Source: Chthoniobacteraceae bacterium (lineage in GTDB: Bacteria > Verrucomicrobiota > Verrucomicrobiia > Chthoniobacterales > Chthoniobacteraceae). From it: 64,000 nucleotides of DNA. The position numbers and the translations under genes were made by a program. Shown here in pieces: positions 32,601 to 40,895 of this stretch. Each line of letters starts with the position of its first letter. The first letter of the stretch is position 1. The stretch is from assembly GCA_028293625.1 (NCBI GenBank), contig JAQGOL010000030.1, positions 792,566-856,565 of the forward strand, in the 5' to 3' direction. The notes under the pieces were generated by a model, which worked only from the letters and a program-made list of their open reading frames with translations, was not told the origin of the DNA and did no database searches.

Positions 32601-35125
32601 CGCTGGGGTCGATCCCGGCGCACGGCACGCGCACCATTCGGTACACCGTGAAGGTGCAGAACGATCTGGCCACCTCCTTCTATGATGCCGCTGGAGTTTC
32701 GCATACGACGGAGATCAACAACGGCGGATACTCGCTGACTGCGACGCCGCCGACGGGCGGCACAATTACAAATGCAACGGGAGGACCAACACGGACGCTC
32801 GTGACCGGCTTCGACCCGGCGGCGATTCCATTTTTTCGCTTTGAGAAACACGCGATAAGCGAAGGCGCGAACGCCGGTGGCGAGATCCGCGTGCAAACAA
32901 CGCGCGAGCCGGTGGATCTCCCCACGGTGCTGCCGAATGATTTGGTGAAGTACACGCTGCACATCAAAAATAATGGGGATGTGGATGCTTTGAATGGCGT
33001 GGTGCAGGATGAAATCGCCACGGGCGTGCAGTTCGCGGGATTTATCTCGATCGCTGGCCATGACCCTTTCCCAAACCAGCTTGTGGCGCGCAAGGCGGAT
33101 GGATCGGTGCTCCCTTCGCCGATTGCGGCCGCGGATCTGAAGCTGGTCAAAGTGCTGGAATTCCATGTCGGGGCGATCGCCGCGAACCAGGCGTTGGATC
33201 TCACCTACAAGACCCAGGCCATCGCGCCGGTTGGCTCGATCATCGTGGCGAACGACGCCCGCATGTGGACGGCCAGCCTGACGATGCCAGTGAAGTGCTC
33301 GCCGGCCGTCGCGCCGGTGATGGTGGTAAAGCCGATCTCGTTTGAGCTTGAAACGCAGGCGGACAAGTCGCGGGTCAGGGCCGGCGAGACGCTCACCTAC
33401 ACGGTGACGTGCCGAAACAACGGCGGCGTGCCGGCGCTCAATTCAGCCGTCGTGGTTCCGATTCCGGCGGGGACAACCTATGTGACGAACTCGGGCATTT
33501 TTGTAGCCGATGATCACACGCCTGTGACGGGCGGTTCTGTGGAAGCTCCAAGCCGGGCGAACTCGGCTCTCCTCTTCAGCGCCGGAGATTTGCCCGCGGG
33601 CGAGCATCGGAACGTGCAGTTCAAAGTGACGGTCAACAACCCGCTGCTGACCTCGCTCAAGGTACCGGGGTCGCACATCGATTTGAAGCCGGTGGCGAAA
33701 GGGTTTTACCAATCCGGAGCGGTGGCGCGGCAGTTCTCCACGGGCCGTTTGGCCGCGCCGGCCATGCAACTGGTCACTTCGCTGGCCGATGCGCAGCAGA
33801 CGCCGGTGCTGCAGGGACCCACGGCCGCCCACCTCTGGGCGATGAAGTCGTATCCGAACTTCGTCTATTCCGGGCAGAAGCTGCAATACCAGCTCACCTG
33901 GGGAAATAGCGGCGATGACGCGCTGCCCGGGATCCAGGCGGCGATCCAGATTCCCTTCGGCACCGAACTTGTGCCGGCGGATACGACGCCCGGTTACGCG
34001 TTGCACGGAGGCATTGTTTCATGGCGCACAGGGCCGCTGGCCGGGCATGGTGCAGGCAGTGCCATTCTGGTGGTGAAGGTGCTGAAAACCTCGGTTTACA
34101 AAGATGACACGCTCAATGAGAACTCCGCGTTCGTCGCCTCCACCAACGCCCCGGCAAACGGCGTGGTGCCGGGCGTGGCGAGTACGCTGATCCTCTCGGA
34201 ATCGCCGTTAGTCGGTGCCTGGCAGAGCTTGGGCGCCGTGCTGCGTGGGATCGGTGCAAACCTGTTTGGGAACAGCAACCCGCAACTCGATCAATCGGTG
34301 AAGGGGCTGAAGGGGAATGCCGTGAGCGTCACGATTCGCGGCGCCGATGTGATCACGCTCAACAACGGCATTTTGCTCATCCCCAACCAGGGCGGCAAAC
34401 TTGTCGCCTCCGGTGCGGGCAATCTGATCGCAAGCGGTGGTGGAAACCTGATCGCCTCGGGTGGCGGAAATTTGGTCGCGAGTGGGGCAGGAAATATCGT
34501 TGTGCAAGGCACGGGCGCCTCGATGAGTTTCGCGGGAATTGGCGTTTGCTCCCCGAGCAATCTGACCGATTTTGCCGTAAATCAGCTTGTCGCATCCGGT
34601 GCAGGCAATCTGATCGCAAGCGGCGGGGGAAATGTGATCTCAGACAACGGGCTGGGTGTTATCAGCAATGACGGCGGCTCGATCATCGCGATCTCCTCGC
34701 ACGATGCCGGGCTTATCGCTTCGGGCGGCGGGAATCTGGTTGCAAGCGGCGCTGGCAATCTCATTGCGAGCGGCGGCGGCAATCTCGTTGCGAGTGGTGC
34801 AGGCAACTTCAGCGAAAGCCTCCTTTCCAGCCGCGCGGGCGTGGTAACGGTGGTAAGCGGGAGTGGCTTTGTCACCGTAGGCCGGCTGATCAGCCAGGAC
34901 GGTGGAGGGCTCATTAGCCAGGATGGTGGCGGCCTTATCAGCCAGGACGGAGGGGGTCTCATCAGTCAGGATGGTGGCGGCATTTTGAGCCGCAACGCCG
35001 GACAACTGATCAGCCAGGATGGCGGCGGTCTTAAACTGACAAACGGAGCCAGCCTGACGCAAAGGGAAGGCAATCAGTTCAACGGCAGCGCCGACCGGGG
35101 CCTTGCGCCGACCTCAAGCCAATAG
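29603..35125 (+). CDS. Giant exported repeat protein (VCBS/FG-GAP, Calx-beta, DUF11, octapeptide tail)
   Basis: This protein has 1840 residues. A signal peptide (1-30) is followed by five FG-GAP/VCBS calcium-loop repeats (about 110-460) such as ATGDLNNDGFTDIV and IGDLDGDGVVDLF. Next come one Calx-beta domain (about 475-595, T-V-T-E-G-G-T-A-D-V-V) and five DUF11-type beta-sandwiches (about 755-1500), each with a K-N-x-G-D motif. The tail (about 1595-1815) is built of octapeptides: G-G-G-N-L-I-A-S / G-A-G-N-L-V-A-S repeats, then L-I-S-Q-D-G-G-G repeats. There is no sorting signal or autotransporter barrel at the C terminus. It is probably a cell-surface or matrix protein; how it is retained is unclear. 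Confidence 0.85.
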   Translation: MLRHLLTPRSGFALLSVLLLGATSVPGRAASPPAPQFRDPQVVAGFGAGAVKVVGSRVNAAQNPANLTVDKRSSISFTNSTTQDVVIADDANQQVVIKRGPVGTSALPDIDLPMPAELSAGHISDLAVADLNSDSLPDLVVVCGGRLVVYINSFDQNTTTNPTQVPSFAAPVIREGRDPDDGSLLSFSCVAAIQIDLQEAATTPPDIVAGVALGDPLDSSSRHGFLAHFHNDGHGTLGNAPEYLRMKRGVSFLATGDLNNDGFTDIVTGDAITGRVLVLKNMDNGGGTRTISPTISVPAELFALGGVAGLAIGDTDNDGARDILALTGQTGTSNGQPATLSYVTLFHNNGTGTMSSYGSLRLKTVSSDTPLTVRGNVAIGDLNGDGTTGEIVVADALDDQISILTVDPTLQALNHSFYALTTTLAAAKGARSVEIGDLDGDGVVDLFVANSDVDLPGEFYSNSAGSGGGGTASVNIEFAEAAETVTEGGTADVVLNRGTSTAGAFSVSFTVGGTATVNNGRNGKAADFSIDTSDPEVKFNPATKAGSISFTAAEQTKTIKVTIPASTGEEVNETVTFLLGTVTPFTQVLGEVTLNTLTITDTQKPSVKAPGKLIVVPSNVIKRSAADLRGFGVAAVGRNGSDWTFTVTQPSDPLSSGVKVKVQYSLSATTDSWTDLLDLQPLHGVVWSGKTSDMPEGQKVFFRTVSSANGLLDTNGRTTAAYAVVPGPKLQLTAKQAPKGDSSDPARFTTTTVTTYNSDEIHYSLVVKNAGDSDATNVILAIPLSYFVDAKNRPTSLKNHFLAGTQPNIAGASLQLLNKRGAVTSDPSEVFSAQYVYPTLKAGETDFVTVVLGTLSAAEYNARDQTASFNERIVWSGASLSAKDQGVISRAASPASLTAVVANPLDVLVSTTTSTDSNNIASTGGTIQYEFTITNHANFTFNEVKFKDTVPAGTALYGVNDQEGTSGNFTRLPINTASAPGGNPSVPLFQYGKQQEITWTLGSIPAHGTRTIRYTVKVQNDLATSFYDAAGVSHTTEINNGGYSLTATPPTGGTITNATGGPTRTLVTGFDPAAIPFFRFEKHAISEGANAGGEIRVQTTREPVDLPTVLPNDLVKYTLHIKNNGDVDALNGVVQDEIATGVQFAGFISIAGHDPFPNQLVARKADGSVLPSPIAAADLKLVKVLEFHVGAIAANQALDLTYKTQAIAPVGSIIVANDARMWTASLTMPVKCSPAVAPVMVVKPISFELETQADKSRVRAGETLTYTVTCRNNGGVPALNSAVVVPIPAGTTYVTNSGIFVADDHTPVTGGSVEAPSRANSALLFSAGDLPAGEHRNVQFKVTVNNPLLTSLKVPGSHIDLKPVAKGFYQSGAVARQFSTGRLAAPAMQLVTSLADAQQTPVLQGPTAAHLWAMKSYPNFVYSGQKLQYQLTWGNSGDDALPGIQAAIQIPFGTELVPADTTPGYALHGGIVSWRTGPLAGHGAGSAILVVKVLKTSVYKDDTLNENSAFVASTNAPANGVVPGVASTLILSESPLVGAWQSLGAVLRGIGANLFGNSNPQLDQSVKGLKGNAVSVTIRGADVITLNNGILLIPNQGGKLVASGAGNLIASGGGNLIASGGGNLVASGAGNIVVQGTGASMSFAGIGVCSPSNLTDFAVNQLVASGAGNLIASGGGNVISDNGLGVISNDGGSIIAISSHDAGLIASGGGNLVASGAGNLIASGGGNLVASGAGNFSESLLSSRAGVVTVVSGSGFVTVGRLISQDGGGLISQDGGGLISQDGGGLISQDGGGILSRNAGQLISQDGGGLKLTNGASLTQREGNQFNGSADRGLAPTSSQ
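34391..35040 (+). repeat. Tandem 24-bp coding repeats (two octapeptide families)
   Basis: Within the giant protein, 24-base units encode GGGNLIAS/GAGNLVAS in three blocks (about 34391-34500, 34588-34632 and 34705-34808). A second family encoding LISQDGGG occupies about 34885-35040. Codons vary between units, so the repeat is kept at the protein level rather than being a recent DNA expansion. Confidence 0.8.
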
Positions 35126-36498: not shown

Positions 36499-36578
36499 AT
36501 TCTCATAAAAAGGCGGGCTTTCCTTTAGGCTGCCATTTCTGCCTGTGTTCTTAGCGACCGGAACAGTCTCCGCTCCTC

Positions 36579-36606
36579 TCCAACTATTTGCCTGTTCCTT
36601 CTTATT
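36579..36606 (-). repeat. RAYT-associated repeat, copy a
   Basis: On the minus strand this contains GGAACAGGCAAATAGTTGG, a variant of the repeat core GGGAC(G/A)GG(T/C)AAATAGTTG. It lies 21 bp before the small lipoprotein gene. Confidence 0.6.
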
Positions 36607-36627
36607 CAATCCGGTCAACGTTTCTGA

Positions 36628-37047
36628 ATGAAACAAACAACGGTTATTTTCCGGCTAAACGCCGTGATGTTCATTCTTACCGTTTTTTGTCTCACGGGTT
36701 GCAAGCCCAGGTCATTTCACTACTCCAGCAGCTGGAGCAACAACACTTCATCAAGCGACTCGACCACCAATGGCTACAGGACGAGCACACGCACTCAGAA
36801 CGGAGTGACGCGCAAGCTCGAAACCGCAGCTGGTATTGAAATCGAGAATGGGCGTGTGACCAAATTCCCGAAGGCAGCGCTCGCAAAACTCCAGGAGAGC
36901 GGAGGGACTCAACCGCGCGTTGCTGAACTGCGGGAAAACGCGGATACAATCGAGTTATGGATTCAAGACAACGGGACCTTTCGCAGAGGTTCCGCCGAAG
37001 ACGATTCCTGGCTGGAACGCTTCCTCGCCGAATTCAACTCGAAATGA
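36628..37047 (+). CDS. Small lipoprotein, unknown function
   Basis: This 139-residue protein has a lipoprotein signal with lipobox C-L-T-G-C, placing the lipidated Cys at residue 25. It is followed by a Ser/Thr/Asn-rich low-complexity stretch (28-60), typical of a flexible linker from the membrane. A small globular C-terminal region follows (D-T-I-E-L-W-I-Q-D-N-G-T-F). No known domain is visible. The gene is bounded on the left by repeat copy a and on the right by copies b and c. Confidence 0.65.
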   Translation: MKQTTVIFRLNAVMFILTVFCLTGCKPRSFHYSSSWSNNTSSSDSTTNGYRTSTRTQNGVTRKLETAAGIEIENGRVTKFPKAALAKLQESGGTQPRVAELRENADTIELWIQDNGTFRRGSAEDDSWLERFLAEFNSK

Positions 37048-37088
37048 CTACTCTGAAGCCACCAAACTGCCATTCGCGACTAGGCTTC

Positions 37089-37164
37089 CACTTCAACTAT
37101 TTGCCTGTCCCTTATTTCCTTTCTAGCACTTCAACTATTTGCCTGTCCCTTATTTCCTTTCTAG
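37089..37164 (-). repeat. RAYT-associated repeat, copies b and c: perfect 38-bp tandem duplication
   Basis: Positions 37089-37126 and 37127-37164 are identical 38-base units. Each carries, on the minus strand, AAGGGACAGGCAAATAGTTG. Perfect identity implies a recent duplication. Orientation is opposite to copies d, e and f. Confidence 0.8.
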
Positions 37165-37277
37165 AGAGTTCGTAAGGATACTCGTCATCCGCTTTCAATT
37201 GGTCCCTATCTCATCCGACACTCGACTACCGCATGCTCCGTCGCAATGAGCTTCACCCGCCCTATGTATCCCACTGC

Positions 37278-37385
37278 TATCAACGCAGAACCGAGCGCTC
37301 CACTCAACCGCGCAGGGCGAGGAAGCGCCCGTTCCAATCCCAGCGTTTCTCGCCCTGCGCGGCGAGTGAGCTTCTTTCGTTAGGC
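37278..37385 (+). repeat. Candidate integron attC recombination site
   Basis: The site ends in CGTTAGGC, which fits the R' core GTTRRRY at 37379-37385. It is preceded by a long hairpin: CCGCGCAGGGCGAG (37308-37321) pairs perfectly with CTCGCCCTGCGCGG (37349-37362). The stem extends outwards through CACTC/GAGTG and GCTC/GAGC with unpaired bases on each side, as attC structures have. The left R'' core is poor (TATCAAC at 37278-37284). Length ~108 bp is within the attC range. A short ORF begins 39 bp after the core, as in gene cassettes. No integrase is in the window. Confidence 0.42.
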
Positions 37386-37423
37386 GCTTCTACCGTCACT
37401 CACACCCAAAGAACTCACTGAAT

Positions 37424-37795
37424 ATGCAAGTAACCCTAATCAGCACCATAATTGCATTCCCCATCCTAGCCGCATCTGAGGTTCCTGCCGGGATGCTGAT
37501 GCTCAACACAGGGGTAGCGATCCTTATCGGCGTCATTACCATAGCCGAGAAGCTAAGTGGACATTGGTCGAAGCTGTCACCGAATGTCTCAGGCGAGCCA
37601 CGGTCGATCAGTTATTTCGGCGCAGGTTTTCGCTACCTCCTCGCGCTGCTTTGCCCGCTACTTGGTTTCATTCTCTGGCTATTTTGCCGCCGCAAGCCCC
37701 TCGACGGCGACCGAAGAGTGGCGCGGCGTCTCAAGCGAGTGACGATCGCAAGTTGGATCATCAACGGCATTTTGGTATTTGCGATGGAGTTATGA
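37424..37795 (+). CDS. Small membrane protein, cassette-like ORF
   Basis: This 123-residue protein has three or four hydrophobic segments (about 1-18, 23-42, 65-86 and 105-122) separated by basic loops (C-R-R-K-P-L-D-G-D-R-R-V-A-R-R). The family is not recognised. It starts 39 bp after the candidate attC core GTTAGGC and ends 75 bp before repeat copy d, so it may be an integron-type cassette whose right-hand attC was replaced or lost. No ribosome-binding site is clear. Confidence 0.6.
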   Translation: MQVTLISTIIAFPILAASEVPAGMLMLNTGVAILIGVITIAEKLSGHWSKLSPNVSGEPRSISYFGAGFRYLLALLCPLLGFILWLFCRRKPLDGDRRVARRLKRVTIASWIINGILVFAMEL

Positions 37796-37854
37796 TCGCA
37801 GCGCACGACACTACTATGGAGACACTCGTTCGCAATCGGCCTCGAAAAACGAAA

Positions 37855-38028
37855 TTAAGAAATTAAGAAGAAATTAAGGGACGGGTAAATAGTTGATGAG
37901 CACTTGGTGAAATAGGATTCCTCCCGGATCTGGGTCATCACGTCCCATTTGTTGCCGCTGAGACCGGCGAGCGCCGGTGTAATGAACTTGGTGCGGATGT
38001 CCGCCTCGGTGAGAGATTTTTTGTTCAT
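37855..38028 (-). pseudogene. Truncated 5' fragment of a type I restriction enzyme R subunit (hsdR)
   Basis: From an ATG at 38028 the minus strand reads M-N-K-K-S-L-T-E-A-D-I-R-T-K-F-I-T-P-A-L, continuing K-W-D-V-M-T-Q-I-R-E-E to residue 42. This closely resembles the N terminus of HsdR-type DEAD-box restriction subunits. Similarity stops at about 37903, and the next bases are repeat copy d (37870-37901). The frame then runs through the repeat and stops at 37855, giving only 57 residues out of a protein that is normally 800-1000. This is a gene remnant cut at the repeat border. Confidence 0.6.
37870..37901 (+). repeat. RAYT-associated repeat, copy d
   Basis: This copy contains AAGGGACGGGTAAATAGTTG in plus orientation, preceded by two extra AAATTAAG-like units. 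Its right edge coincides with the end of the hsdR similarity. Confidence 0.75.
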
Positions 38029-38203
38029 GGAAAGGAGGGGCGGAACAGCCAGCGGCGCTTACGGCCACAAGGCACTGTGTAGCACACCTGAAGGCAAAGG
38101 TACGTCTACGTAAAGCTAATGCGTGAAAGAAGCGGCCTCCGCTACATATGCTGGCTGCATCCCGCAAGGCAGCGTTTCCATTCAGAATGCGAAATTAAGC
38201 GGC

Positions 38204-38236
38204 GGAAATTAAGGGACGGGTAAATAGTTGAAGAGC
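38204..38236 (+). repeat. RAYT-associated repeat, copy e
   Basis: This copy contains AAGGGACGGGTAAATAGTTG in plus orientation and matches copy d at all but one or two positions over ~31 bases. A partial GAAATTAAG unit lies just before it (38191-38199). It ends 28 bp from the stop codon of the minus-strand esterase gene. Confidence 0.75.
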
Positions 38237-38264
38237 ATGCCCGATCCAGGAAGCAATTTGAACT

Positions 38265-39476
38265 TCAACGCCCGACTGGAACTTCCACCATCGGGCTCGT
38301 CGTCCGACGGTTTTTATGGTCGAGCCCGCTAAAGAAAAACGCAGTCGTACTCATCGGAAGCTTCGCTGAAATTGTTGAGCCAACCACATCCTTCTCCTCA
38401 ACAGAAACAGTGCGCCAAACCCGTTTCTGCCAGGGACCGGAATCGACCGTATAGTTTACCATAACGGACCTGACGATCGGGAGATCAGGTCGCCTCGGAG
38501 CGTCCGGGTCGACTCCAACGCAAATCGCATAACCATTTGCAACCTCGGAAATCCGCAGGCGAGCGATCTGCGGCACCCCCGTTTTCAACGCGGCATCGAC
38601 GAAATCATCAACCTCGGAGAACGTCCACAAGTGACCGTGCGGCATTTCGATGATGATCGATATATTTCGCAAATCGGAACGTACCGACATGTAGGTCTTC
38701 ATCACGCTGTCGAGCGGGTAGGCGACGTCGTTCGTGCCGTCTAAAAAGAGGATCGGGCAGCGGATGGTTGCCAGATAGCTGCTCGGATCGAAAAGGCGCA
38801 GCCAGCGTTCGCGCTGCTCGGCGGGCATTTTGTCGAGGATCGGCTCCTTCCAATAGCTGTTGTCGCCGAGGGAGCCGCAGCCGTAAACCGACACTGCGAC
38901 CTTTAGGCGGTCATCGAGCCCGGCGACGATGCAGGCGAGATAACCGCCCCAGGAGATGCCCGTGACGCCGATGCGTTCGCGGTCCACTTCCGGCAACGAA
39001 GCGAGCAGAGAATGCCCGCGGATTACCGCCGCGACAGCGTGATACGTCCACATTTCCCGCGCCTCGTCTTCCTCGAACGCCCGAAACTTGATCGGGTCAT
39101 GCTGATCCGGTCCGCCATCCGGCAACCGACTCTTATCTTTGGCCTGTCCTGCGGTGTCCATGGCCAGCGCCACGTAGCCGCGCTTTGCCCAATGCTCGGC
39201 CCAGTCCTTGAATGCCTGTCCGCCACCGCCGTGCACGAGCACGATCGCCGGAAACGGTCCTTCGCCTTCCGGTCGCGCGAGATAGGCGAAAATGCGCGTG
39301 GGTTTTCCGGCGAGCGGCTCACCTTCGTAAAAGACTTCCTGCGTCAATCCCGCGCGTTCTCCCCATTCCGCGCGCGGCGTCTTCTTGAGCTCCGCGAGAT
39401 CCCACGGACCCGTATTGGCGCAAAAGGCTACGCGGGAGATGAAAGCAAGGGCGTAAAGTAGAATGGGGAGACGCAT
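38265..39476 (-). CDS. Exported alpha/beta hydrolase (acetyl-xylan-esterase/dienelactone-hydrolase-like)
   Basis: This 403-residue protein starts at the ATG at 39476, which gives a signal peptide (1-20, ending F-C-A). The upstream extension of the frame to 39554 reads through repeat copy f and is rejected. The hydrolase domain shows H-G-G-G-G (82-86) and the nucleophile elbow G-I-S-W-G-G with Ser175. The acid is probably in L-D-G-T-N-D and the base in P-H-G-H. A C-terminal beta-sandwich-like extension of ~110 residues follows. The gene is bracketed by repeat copies e and f. Confidence 0.87.
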   Translation of the reverse strand: MRLPILLYALAFISRVAFCANTGPWDLAELKKTPRAEWGERAGLTQEVFYEGEPLAGKPTRIFAYLARPEGEGPFPAIVLVHGGGGQAFKDWAEHWAKRGYVALAMDTAGQAKDKSRLPDGGPDQHDPIKFRAFEEDEAREMWTYHAVAAVIRGHSLLASLPEVDRERIGVTGISWGGYLACIVAGLDDRLKVAVSVYGCGSLGDNSYWKEPILDKMPAEQRERWLRLFDPSSYLATIRCPILFLDGTNDVAYPLDSVMKTYMSVRSDLRNISIIIEMPHGHLWTFSEVDDFVDAALKTGVPQIARLRISEVANGYAICVGVDPDAPRRPDLPIVRSVMVNYTVDSGPWQKRVWRTVSVEEKDVVGSTISAKLPMSTTAFFFSGLDHKNRRTTSPMVEVPVGR

Positions 39477-39496
39477 GAGTGCGATGTAGCAGAAGC

Positions 39497-39534
39497 GGGA
39501 AATTAAGGAAGGGACGGGTAAATAGCTGGAGGGG
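39497..39534 (+). repeat. RAYT-associated repeat, copy f
   Basis: This copy contains AAGGGACGGGTAAATAGCTG (one change from copies d and e, with a 4-base insertion before it). It lies 40 bp upstream of the transposase start, the usual place for the REP cognate of a RAYT gene. Confidence 0.75.
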
Positions 39535-39574
39535 AATGGCGCCCTTTTAGACAATCAGTCCCGATTTTAAGTGT

Positions 39575-40618
39575 ATGAGGCAAGCGCGGTGCAAGGCCGG
39601 AGAGGATTGGGAGGCCGGGTATTATCACTGTCTTTCACGCGTGATTGAAAGGCGGTTCATCTTTGGGGTGGAGGAGAAGGAATACTTCCTCAAACTGATG
39701 CGCGGTTACGAGGCGTTCTGTGGCGTTCAGATCATCACGTACTGTTTGATGAGCAATCATTTCCATATCCTGGTCCAGGTGCCTCACCGGCCGGCGCTGG
39801 CCGGGCAGCTGCCCACAGACTGCCAGCTTGTGGAGCTCGCGCGTCTTGCCGATTATTCTTACAGTGCGCCCGCCCTCAAACAGGATCTTGAGCGCTTCCG
39901 CTTGCAGGGAGAGGACGACGCAGCCGAAGAGTTGCGGGAAAGGCTTTTTTGCCGGATGTGGGATGTGAGCTGGTTTATGAAGATGCTAAAGCAGCGCTTC
40001 ACCCAGTGGTATAATCGCCGCGTCGGCCGCAAAGGCCCGCTTTGGGAGGATCGCTTTCGCAGCGTGCTCGTGGAGGGGGCAGGTCCGGCGCTGGCCGCTG
40101 TTGCCACCTATATCGATCTGAACCCCGTGCGGGCAGGGATTGTAAAAGATCCGGCTGACTACCGCTGGTGCGGCTACGCGGAAGCGATGGCCGGGGACGG
40201 GCGTGCCCGGCTCGGGTTGCGGACGGCCGTGGAGGCGCTCGTGCGAGAAAGCGGGGTATCACTTGAGCGTACGATGGAAGAATACCGGTGTTACCTCTAT
40301 TTTGCCGGGGAAGAAGTAGAGGGGGAGGAGGTTTCGGTCGACGGACTTGAAGCGGCACGCAAAGGGTTCAGCGCGGAGGAGGTTCAGGCGATACTTCAAA
40401 GTGGCGGAAGGATCCCTCTCTCGGAGGCCATCCGACACAGGGTGCGTTATTTTTGCGATGGTCAGGTGTTTGGGAGCCGGGCTTTTGTGAATGAATTCTT
40501 TGCGGCGCACCGCGAGCGCTTCGGCAGGAAGCGAACAAGCGGAGCGCGGCCGCTGCGCGGGATTAACGCAGGCAATCTCTGGACAATCCGCGATCTGCGG
40601 TTGCAGGTGATCAGTTGA
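39575..40618 (+). CDS. REP-associated tyrosine transposase (RAYT / TnpA-REP, Y1 family)
   Basis: This 347-residue single-strand transposase belongs to the IS200/IS605-like Y1 superfamily. The N terminus is typical (Y-Y-H-C-L-S-R-V). The HUH metal motif is H-F-H at 62-64 in M-S-N-H-F-H-I-L-V, and the probable catalytic tyrosine is Tyr146 in F-T-Q-W-Y-N-R-R. It is followed by G-P-L-W-E-D-R-F and Y-I-D-L-N-P-V-R-A-G, hallmarks of this group. A C-terminal extension (~220-347) is probably helical. Such proteins nick REP repeats near their gene; six copies of a shared repeat lie within 3 kb upstream, copy f at 40 bp. The gene looks intact. Confidence 0.92.
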   Translation: MRQARCKAGEDWEAGYYHCLSRVIERRFIFGVEEKEYFLKLMRGYEAFCGVQIITYCLMSNHFHILVQVPHRPALAGQLPTDCQLVELARLADYSYSAPALKQDLERFRLQGEDDAAEELRERLFCRMWDVSWFMKMLKQRFTQWYNRRVGRKGPLWEDRFRSVLVEGAGPALAAVATYIDLNPVRAGIVKDPADYRWCGYAEAMAGDGRARLGLRTAVEALVRESGVSLERTMEEYRCYLYFAGEEVEGEEVSVDGLEAARKGFSAEEVQAILQSGGRIPLSEAIRHRVRYFCDGQVFGSRAFVNEFFAAHRERFGRKRTSGARPLRGINAGNLWTIRDLRLQVIS

Positions 40619-40693
40619 AAATTCGGGAGGCCATGGAAGAGCGACGTTCCTGCGCCGCTTTCAATTACCCGTGAGTTTTGAGGCTAAGTTCCA

Positions 40694-40760
40694 GCCTAAC
40701 CGAATGTCAATGAGGCCGAGAACGGCTTCATTCACAGCCACGCTCGGTAGATCAAGCTCA
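40694..40760 (+). repeat. Possible attC relic or small hairpin
   Basis: GCCTAAC (40694-40700) fits the attC R'' core RYYYAAC. It is followed by a hairpin with AATGAGGCCG (40709-40718), an AGAA loop and CGGCTTCATT (one wobble pair). The right side reads GGTAGAT instead of GTTRRRY, so at best this is a decayed site. Confidence 0.2.
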
Positions 40761-40895
40761 GTCAACTACAATCTGGCTGACTGCGCGCGTGATTACAATA
40801 AAGTGTCGTTCCCTTTCCATGTCGTCCCGTCTCTGTCATCCCGTTTTCAAAAACTGGCGTAATGGTTGGAAACTGTAATGGGATACCTTGGCTTC

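What the first reader, a model, noticed from the sequence alone, without database searches (positions are those of the whole stretch)
36579..40618. RAYT transposase with six repeat copies that alternate one-for-one with single genes
Six copies of a repeat (core GACGGGTAAATAGTTG or GACAGGCAAATAGTTG) lie at 36579, 37089, 37127, 37870, 38204 and 39497. Between successive repeat sites there is exactly one gene unit: a lipoprotein, a small membrane protein, an hsdR fragment and an esterase, then the RAYT itself. Copies a-c are inverted relative to d-f. RAYTs are known to act on REP repeats beside their own gene. Here the repeats look like boundaries of a modular gene array, which suggests that the RAYT or its repeats help capture or shuffle accessory genes. 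The last step is inference.
Basis: partly seen in the sequence, partly recalled or inferred. Interest (0 to 1): 0.85.

Follow-up and report, generated by a model that had tools for sequence, protein, structure and literature searches.

The report
Transposase end-repeats scattered between genes
Six short repeats around a small bacterial transposase gene are most likely stray copies of the transposase's own end sequence, lying between ordinary genes, rather than borders of swappable gene modules, although one of them sits exactly on the broken end of a restriction gene.

Summary
The six repeats are real (0.04 expected), at five sites: b and c are one 38-bp tandem duplication. The repeat is the left end of the transposase's own mobile unit and is private to this genome: 15 copies within one mismatch, and no exact copy in 146 relatives. 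Seven of the 15 are left ends of the gene itself. The eight isolated copies keep 22-31 nt of that end, have mostly AT-rich flanks and, where folded, no hairpin. The enzyme is an intact HUH/Y1 protein whose model best matches the E. coli REP transposase 4ER8. It is nearest to the described TIRYT kind; the window copy lacks a matching inverted right end. A sister family in the same genome builds arrays of end fragments, and 16 of 33 array units re-copy at least 7 nt of an earlier flank. b/c show the same signature. This fits nicking at flank^GGGAC with local re-synthesis (inferred). Gene capture is not supported but not excluded: repeat d lies at the breakpoint of a truncated hsdR, and contig C8 has a second one-gene interval. 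RAYT repeats scattered between neighbouring genes are already described (PMC2817692). New member of a known kind.

The parts
36576..36606 (-). repeat a (isolated end copy, AACAGGCAAATAGTTG core 36581-36596)
   Evidence: end homology runs 31 nt
37089..37126 (-). repeat b with its duplicated flank (38-bp unit)
   Evidence: 15-nt flank re-copied
37127..37164 (-). repeat c, perfect tandem copy of b
37870..37902 (+). repeat d with AT-rich flank; its right edge is the breakpoint of the hsdR fragment
38205..38237 (+). repeat e with AT-rich flank
39503..39574 (+). repeat f = left end of the transposase unit; homology with the C32 copy begins at 39509
39575..40618 (+). Y1/HUH transposase, 347 aa, HFH at 62-64 and Y179 intact
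   Evidence: Pfam Y1_Tnp 1.7e-11; alignment; fold
40719..40827 (+). right end of the OTHER (family B) transposase; inverted B terminus AATAAAGTGTCGTTCCC at 40797-40813
   Evidence: 78% to family B right end on C1
37900..38029 (-). hsdR fragment: start codon to about codon 43, cut at repeat d
   Evidence: 85% over 130 nt to intact hsdR of G008; NCBIfam EcoAI R subunit 5.7e-5
36628..37047 (+). 139-aa lipoprotein-like ORF (bystander)
   Evidence: marginal hits in 2 of 146 relatives
37424..37795 (+). 123-aa membrane-protein ORF (bystander, perhaps a former integron cassette)
   Evidence: marginal hits in 2 of 146 relatives
38265..39476 (-). secreted esterase/acetyl-xylan-esterase-like gene (bystander)
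   Evidence: Pfam AXE1 5.3e-17
37285..37386 (+). attC-like hairpin with degenerate left core
   Evidence: 83% to C5:1064-1159; DNA fold z -5.3; pattern; missed by my two-core scan

Best explanation
The repeats are the terminal recognition sequence of a mobile, TIRYT-like Y1 transposase. The enzyme is thought to nick single-stranded DNA between an AT-rich flank (about RAAATWAA) and GGGACRGGYAAATAGTTG, leaving a free 3'-OH on the flank. Short pieces of about 25 nt of the end have been put into similar flank sites nearby, where they survive between genes. At an existing site the 3'-OH can be extended into the end for a variable length, fall back a dozen nt upstream and be re-joined, which duplicates flank plus end (b/c here; arrays in the sister family). 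Shown: positions, copy numbers, end-to-gene link, flank preference, duplications, intact catalytic residues. Inferred: nicking, re-synthesis, insertion of short pieces, and that the genes between are bystanders.
For: 15 genome copies within one mismatch, 7 of them left ends of the gene (C31 f, C32, C42, four in tandem on C43), 5 being a-e, 2 on C8, 1 on C19. Homology of the window copy to the C32 copy starts at the repeat (39509) and ends 25 nt past the stop. 0 exact copies in 146 relatives; 15 one-mismatch hits against 21 of the backwards control. Eight isolated copies keep 22-31 nt by my rule. Flanks of 12 distinct copies are A-rich and 10 of 12 end in A. Family B: 44 copies, 0 control hits, 40 of 44 in groups; 16 of 33 array units end with at least 7 nt of an earlier flank, 9 of 33 with at least 11; window b/c 15 nt. 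HFH and Y179 invariant in 29 sequences; best fold match 4er8.
Against: No cleavage was shown. 17 of 33 array units show less than 7 nt of re-copied flank. C8_2 by eye, and a decayed end on C4, keep more than 31 nt, so not every stray end is a discrete short unit. a, d and e have no duplicated flank on their far side, so how they were inserted is not visible. Dispersed copies more than 1 kb away are rare in relatives: 2 of 17 loci with a usable motif, of 44 given. hsdR is cut at d.
Confidence: 0.7

Rival explanations
1. One reading: one-ended activity copies or moves whatever lies beyond an end, so genes or gene pieces become trapped between successive ends and the row is a growing module array.
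For: hsdR homology stops within a few nt of repeat d and no other hsdR of this type is in the genome (other hits only 30% and 25% identical). C8 also has a single gene between two end copies. Family B array units can hold up to 173 nt that are neither end prefix nor flank by my rule. One site per gap, p 0.018. The two small ORFs are nearly private.
Against: No donor copy of the between-repeat DNA in the genome. REP-type repeats sit between genes anyway, and repeats scattered between neighbours of a RAYT were described in PMC2817692 (passages). GC of 36.5-38.5 kb (0.50-0.57) resembles the right-hand neighbours. No close strain to compare.
Confidence: 0.12
2. The gene row is an integron cassette array and the repeats are incidental.
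For: A true integron integrase on C29 (434 bits, cut-off 265; 0 of 14 control genomes over the cut-off). An attC-like hairpin lies 38 bp before the membrane ORF.
Against: One attC-like site in the row, left core degenerate, not found by my two-core scan, which did find the C5 site and none in the first 5 kb of C29. Three such sites in the genome by pattern. Esterase and hsdR fragment are on the opposite strand.
Confidence: 0.05
3. Plain replication slippage and decay of old elements, with no present role of the enzyme.
For: Tandem duplications arise by slippage. The window element has a hybrid right end. Decayed ends exist (C4).
Against: Many unrelated loci duplicate across the same junction (flank^GGGAC) with different flanks. 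The gene is intact and its copies 93-100% identical.
Confidence: 0.13

Closest known systems
TIRYT / TIRtron (PMC3733652, passages; mostly subclass 2.1 in PMC6006769, passages)
   Same: RAYT-like Y1 enzyme with Y---NP, ends unrelated to GTAG hairpins, ends near the GGGGWSAS motif, end copies in dimers or clusters
   Different: The window copy has no matching inverted right end; only 2 of 30 family loci gave one at p<0.01. The end reads AGGGACGG, two bases off the consensus. Several near-identical gene copies, whereas class 2 is reported to have few and dissimilar copies (subclass 2.3 excepted in number)
RAYT / TnpAREP with REP repeats (PMC2817692, PMC8266576, passages)
   Same: Fold (4er8), catalytic motifs, repeats beside the gene and scattered between neighbouring genes
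   Different: No hairpin, no GTAG, 15 copies and not hundreds, several gene copies
IS200/IS605 transposases (ISDra2, IS608)
   Same: Y1 core fold, flank-specific left end, mobile copies
   Different: No stable end hairpin found, Y motif YIDLNP and not YxENQ (class motif), protein more than twice as long

Membership tests
TIRYT / TIRtron | HUH plus Y---NP Y1 enzyme longer than IS200 TnpA | tested here: met
   H62-F63-H64 and Y179, N183 invariant in 29 sequences, P184 in at least 90%; 347 aa; Y1_Tnp
TIRYT / TIRtron | inverted repeats on both sides of the gene | tested here: inconclusive
   Window copy: none (8 mismatches, p 0.85). C32 sister: yes at +320 (4 mismatches, 0 of 300 permutations). 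Family B on C9: yes (p 0.003). 2 of 30 loci at p<0.01; 6 further loci not tested. Six family B right ends carry it with 2-5 mismatches, no control
TIRYT / TIRtron | GGGGWSAS-like motif in the end | tested here: inconclusive
   Window ends read AGGGACGG or AGGGACAG: 6 or 7 of 8 positions (my comparison); the motif belongs to a majority only in the source
TIRYT / TIRtron | end copies as singles, dimers or clusters elsewhere | tested here: met
RAYT-REP (REPtron) | palindromic repeat with GTAG foot | tested here: not met
   repeat d 0 kcal/mol, b/c z 0.55, left end z 0.30; no GTAG
RAYT-REP (REPtron) | abundant repeats (usually over 100 per genome) | tested here: not met
   15 with at most one mismatch
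IS200/IS605 | subterminal hairpins and YxENQ-type motif | tested here: not met
   left end z 0.30 and C32 left end z 1.20; YIDLNP. Hairpins at the right end not folded
integron cassette array | an attC site after each gene, same strand | tested here: not met
   one attC-like site in the row; two genes on the other strand
gene-capture module array | whole repeat-gene units gained or lost between strains | not testable with these tools
   one genome per species; no conserved neighbourhood in ten stretches from seven same-family genomes

The most novel reading that the evidence does not exclude
One transposase end is enough: a nick at flank^GGGAC primes copying, which normally duplicates the flank plus about 25 nt of end, but now and then runs on or joins distant DNA, so that gene fragments or whole genes (the hsdR start and esterase here, one gene on C8) become trapped between successive ends. 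That would be one-ended, HUH-driven gene trapping in a class of enzymes reported to have few and dissimilar copies per genome.
Probability: 0.1. Interest if true: 0.75.

Novelty: new member of a known kind. Interest (0 to 1): 0.4.

Why it matters
How REP-type repeats spread is poorly understood. Here a hairpin-free relative shows, within one genome, near-identical gene copies, short satellites of its end, and a duplicated-flank signature that points to the likely nick. That makes the spreading step testable with one protein and a short oligonucleotide. It also warns that a repeat in every gap need not mean a gene cassette system.

Tried and rejected
Rejected: a REP hairpin; known RNA families (0 matches at gathering level over the window); an integron array as the cause; a synteny test of unit gain and loss (no conserved order); another hsdR as donor; donor copies of the between-repeat DNA (only element ends and the attC-like stretch). 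Distant extra end copies in relatives: 44 loci given, 17 had a motif by my rule, 2 of 17 had copies more than 1 kb away (L047, L062). Upstream 16-mer repeats: 14 of 48 loci, against 6 of 48 in a stretch 1 kb upstream and 5 of 48 in a stretch 2 kb downstream; with seven or more repeated 16-mers, 12 against 0 and 1. Several of those 12 are inverted repeats (L081, L088, L090) or look like gene duplication (L048); 36 loci given, 30 tested; L155, L158, L160, L162, L175 had no motif by my pattern and L176 was too short. L062 and L168 appear to be the same sequence.

What I say about print rests on the five searches that ran in an open-access library and on passages of four papers. The duplicated-flank arrays may be described elsewhere; PMC3733652 already mentions REP clusters reiterated with segments of flanking DNA.
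Full report
Observation. The degenerate 16-mer occurs six times in the window with up to two mismatches, against 0.04 expected. b and c are a perfect 38-bp tandem copy, so there are five sites, one in each of five successive gaps. The gene list holds, except that the hsdR unit is a fragment of 43 codons.

What the repeat is. In the whole genome (6.8 Mb, 43 contigs) there are 15 copies with at most one mismatch; the backwards control pattern gives 2. Seven are left ends of the same transposase: f here, one on C32, one on C42 and four in tandem on C43. Five are a-e, two are on C8 and one is on C19. The gene has a full copy here, a full copy on C32 (94% identical) and four partial copies of 93-100% identity at contig ends (C1, C9, C42, C43), probably two more genes cut by the assembly. 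Homology between the window and C32 copies runs from 39509, at the repeat, to 40643, 25 nt past the stop. Same-genome pairs in other Verrucomicrobia show a similar outline in part: SXSK, some JAGNEJ pairs, G042, G001 and G012 share DNA from 58-68 nt before the start to 5-80 nt past the stop; others differ, with shared DNA starting inside the gene or running further. In 146 relatives there is no exact copy of the repeat; 14 genomes hold 15 one-mismatch hits, against 21 hits of the backwards control.

The isolated copies. Compared with three left ends, the eight isolated copies (a-e, C19, two on C8) keep 22-31 nt by my rule. By eye the second C8 copy resembles the left end somewhat further, and a decayed end on C4 keeps more. 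The flanks are A-rich: 12 distinct ones, A in last place in 10. Neither the repeat nor the left end folds better than shuffles.

A sister family. Family B (58% identical protein) has 44 copies of GGGACAGRCACTTTMTC with at most one mismatch and 0 of the backwards control. By my count 40 of 44 lie in groups, 26 of them in arrays that run straight into the start of a B gene. Array units begin at GGGACAG and keep 14-44 nt of the end by my prefix rule; in C9, C30 and C38 one unit each runs, by eye, into the gene start. Of 33 units, 16 end with at least 7 nt of an earlier flank and 9 with at least 11 nt, such as C38 (11 and 12), C30 (14 and 14) and C24 (11); 17 show less, among them all three on the left of C7. 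Window b/c show 15 nt, and relatives L178 12 and L161 11, 7 and 6. The right end of the C32 copy is also repeated with its flank, seen by eye in the sequence. In relatives, 14 of 48 loci carry a repeated 16-mer in the 150 nt upstream of the gene, against 6 and 5 of 48 in two control stretches.

The enzyme. Pfam Y1_Tnp 1.7e-11. NCBIfam's REP-associated model gives 54.5 bits, below its cut-off of 80. The HFH motif and Y179 are invariant in 29 sequences. The model (pLDDT 85.3, pTM 0.87) best matches 4er8, the REP transposase (TM by target 0.71, rmsd 2.6), then ISDra2 and others.

Right end. The C32 copy has an inverted end 320 nt past the stop (4 mismatches, 0 of 300 permutations). The window copy has none of its own type. 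Instead 40719-40827 is a family B right end, 78% identical to that on C1. The window copy is thus a hybrid. Over the family, only 2 of 30 loci tested gave an inverted right end at p<0.01, so the inverted-repeat criterion of the TIRYT kind is not settled.

Capture or bystanders. The hsdR start is 85% identical over 130 nt to an intact hsdR of G008 and stops within a few nt of repeat d. Other own-genome hits to that HsdR are only 30% and 25% identical, and no donor DNA was found. Either an old hsdR was cut at d and the rest lost, or a piece was trapped; the data do not decide. C8 repeats the one-gene arrangement. The lipoprotein and membrane ORFs have marginal hits in 2 of 146 relatives each. 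In ten stretches from seven same-family genomes no gene order is conserved; three stretches hold a second, weakly similar (24-33%) window gene. One site per gap has p 0.018 if intergenic placement is given. PMC2817692 already shows repeats of a RAYT scattered between neighbouring genes (passages). I read the genes as bystanders, with the capture reading kept open.

Integron note. A true integron integrase is on C29 and an attC-like hairpin precedes the membrane ORF. My two-core scan found the C5 site but not this one, gave seven unverified matches elsewhere in the window, and none in the first 5 kb of C29. That ORF may be a former cassette; the row as a whole is not an array.

Mechanism. The junction between flank and end is constant while flank and end piece are duplicated together. 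The simplest account is a nick at flank^GGGAC, extension of the 3'-OH, re-annealing a dozen nt upstream and re-joining. That HUH enzymes leave a 3'-OH that can prime synthesis, and that this might spread REPs, is stated for known TnpAREP in PMC8266576 (passages). For this family it is inference.

Known kinds. PMC3733652 (passages) defines TIRYT and TIRtron: RAYT-like genes with terminal inverted repeats unrelated to GTAG repeats, some near GGGGWSAS, with copies in dimers or clusters. PMC6006769 (passages) puts 20 of the 26 into subclass 2.1, finds no REP-like sequence near those genes, and reports low copy number (subclass 2.3 excepted) and low identity between copies for class 2. PMC3116915 was seen as a search listing only. 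I file this locus next to TIRYT, with the inverted-repeat criterion met by the C32 copy and not by the window copy.

Noticed in passing
G000 contig ends on C1 (both), C5, C6, C9, C16, C24, C30, C38, C39, C42, C43: At least 12 contig ends lie inside or within 10 nt of a transposase match of family A or B, so these elements are a main cause of the breaks in this assembly.
   Followed up: partly
window 37285-37386; C5:1060-1158; C32:287038-287103: Three attC-like sequences by pattern; the C5 one has perfect GCCTAAC/GTTAGGC cores. Two of the three lie within about 2.5 kb of a family A transposase.
   Followed up: partly
G000:C29:571-1509: Integron integrase, 434 bits to TIGR02249 (cut-off 265).
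   Followed up: no
G000:C19:441-907: Worn integron-integrase-like stretch about 0.9 kb from the isolated repeat on C19.
   Followed up: no
window 40653-40715: Just past the transposase, 54-64 nt match two places in relative G032 at 84-87%: a further unexplained repeat.
   Followed up: no
window 34300-34900: The 1840-aa FG-GAP/DUF11 protein ends in many ASGGGNLIASGAGN and ISQDGGGL repeats.
   Followed up: no
L081, L088, L090 (JAUIAH contigs): Relatives of the transposase with a palindromic upstream sequence, so some members of the wider family do have hairpin-like ends.
   Followed up: no
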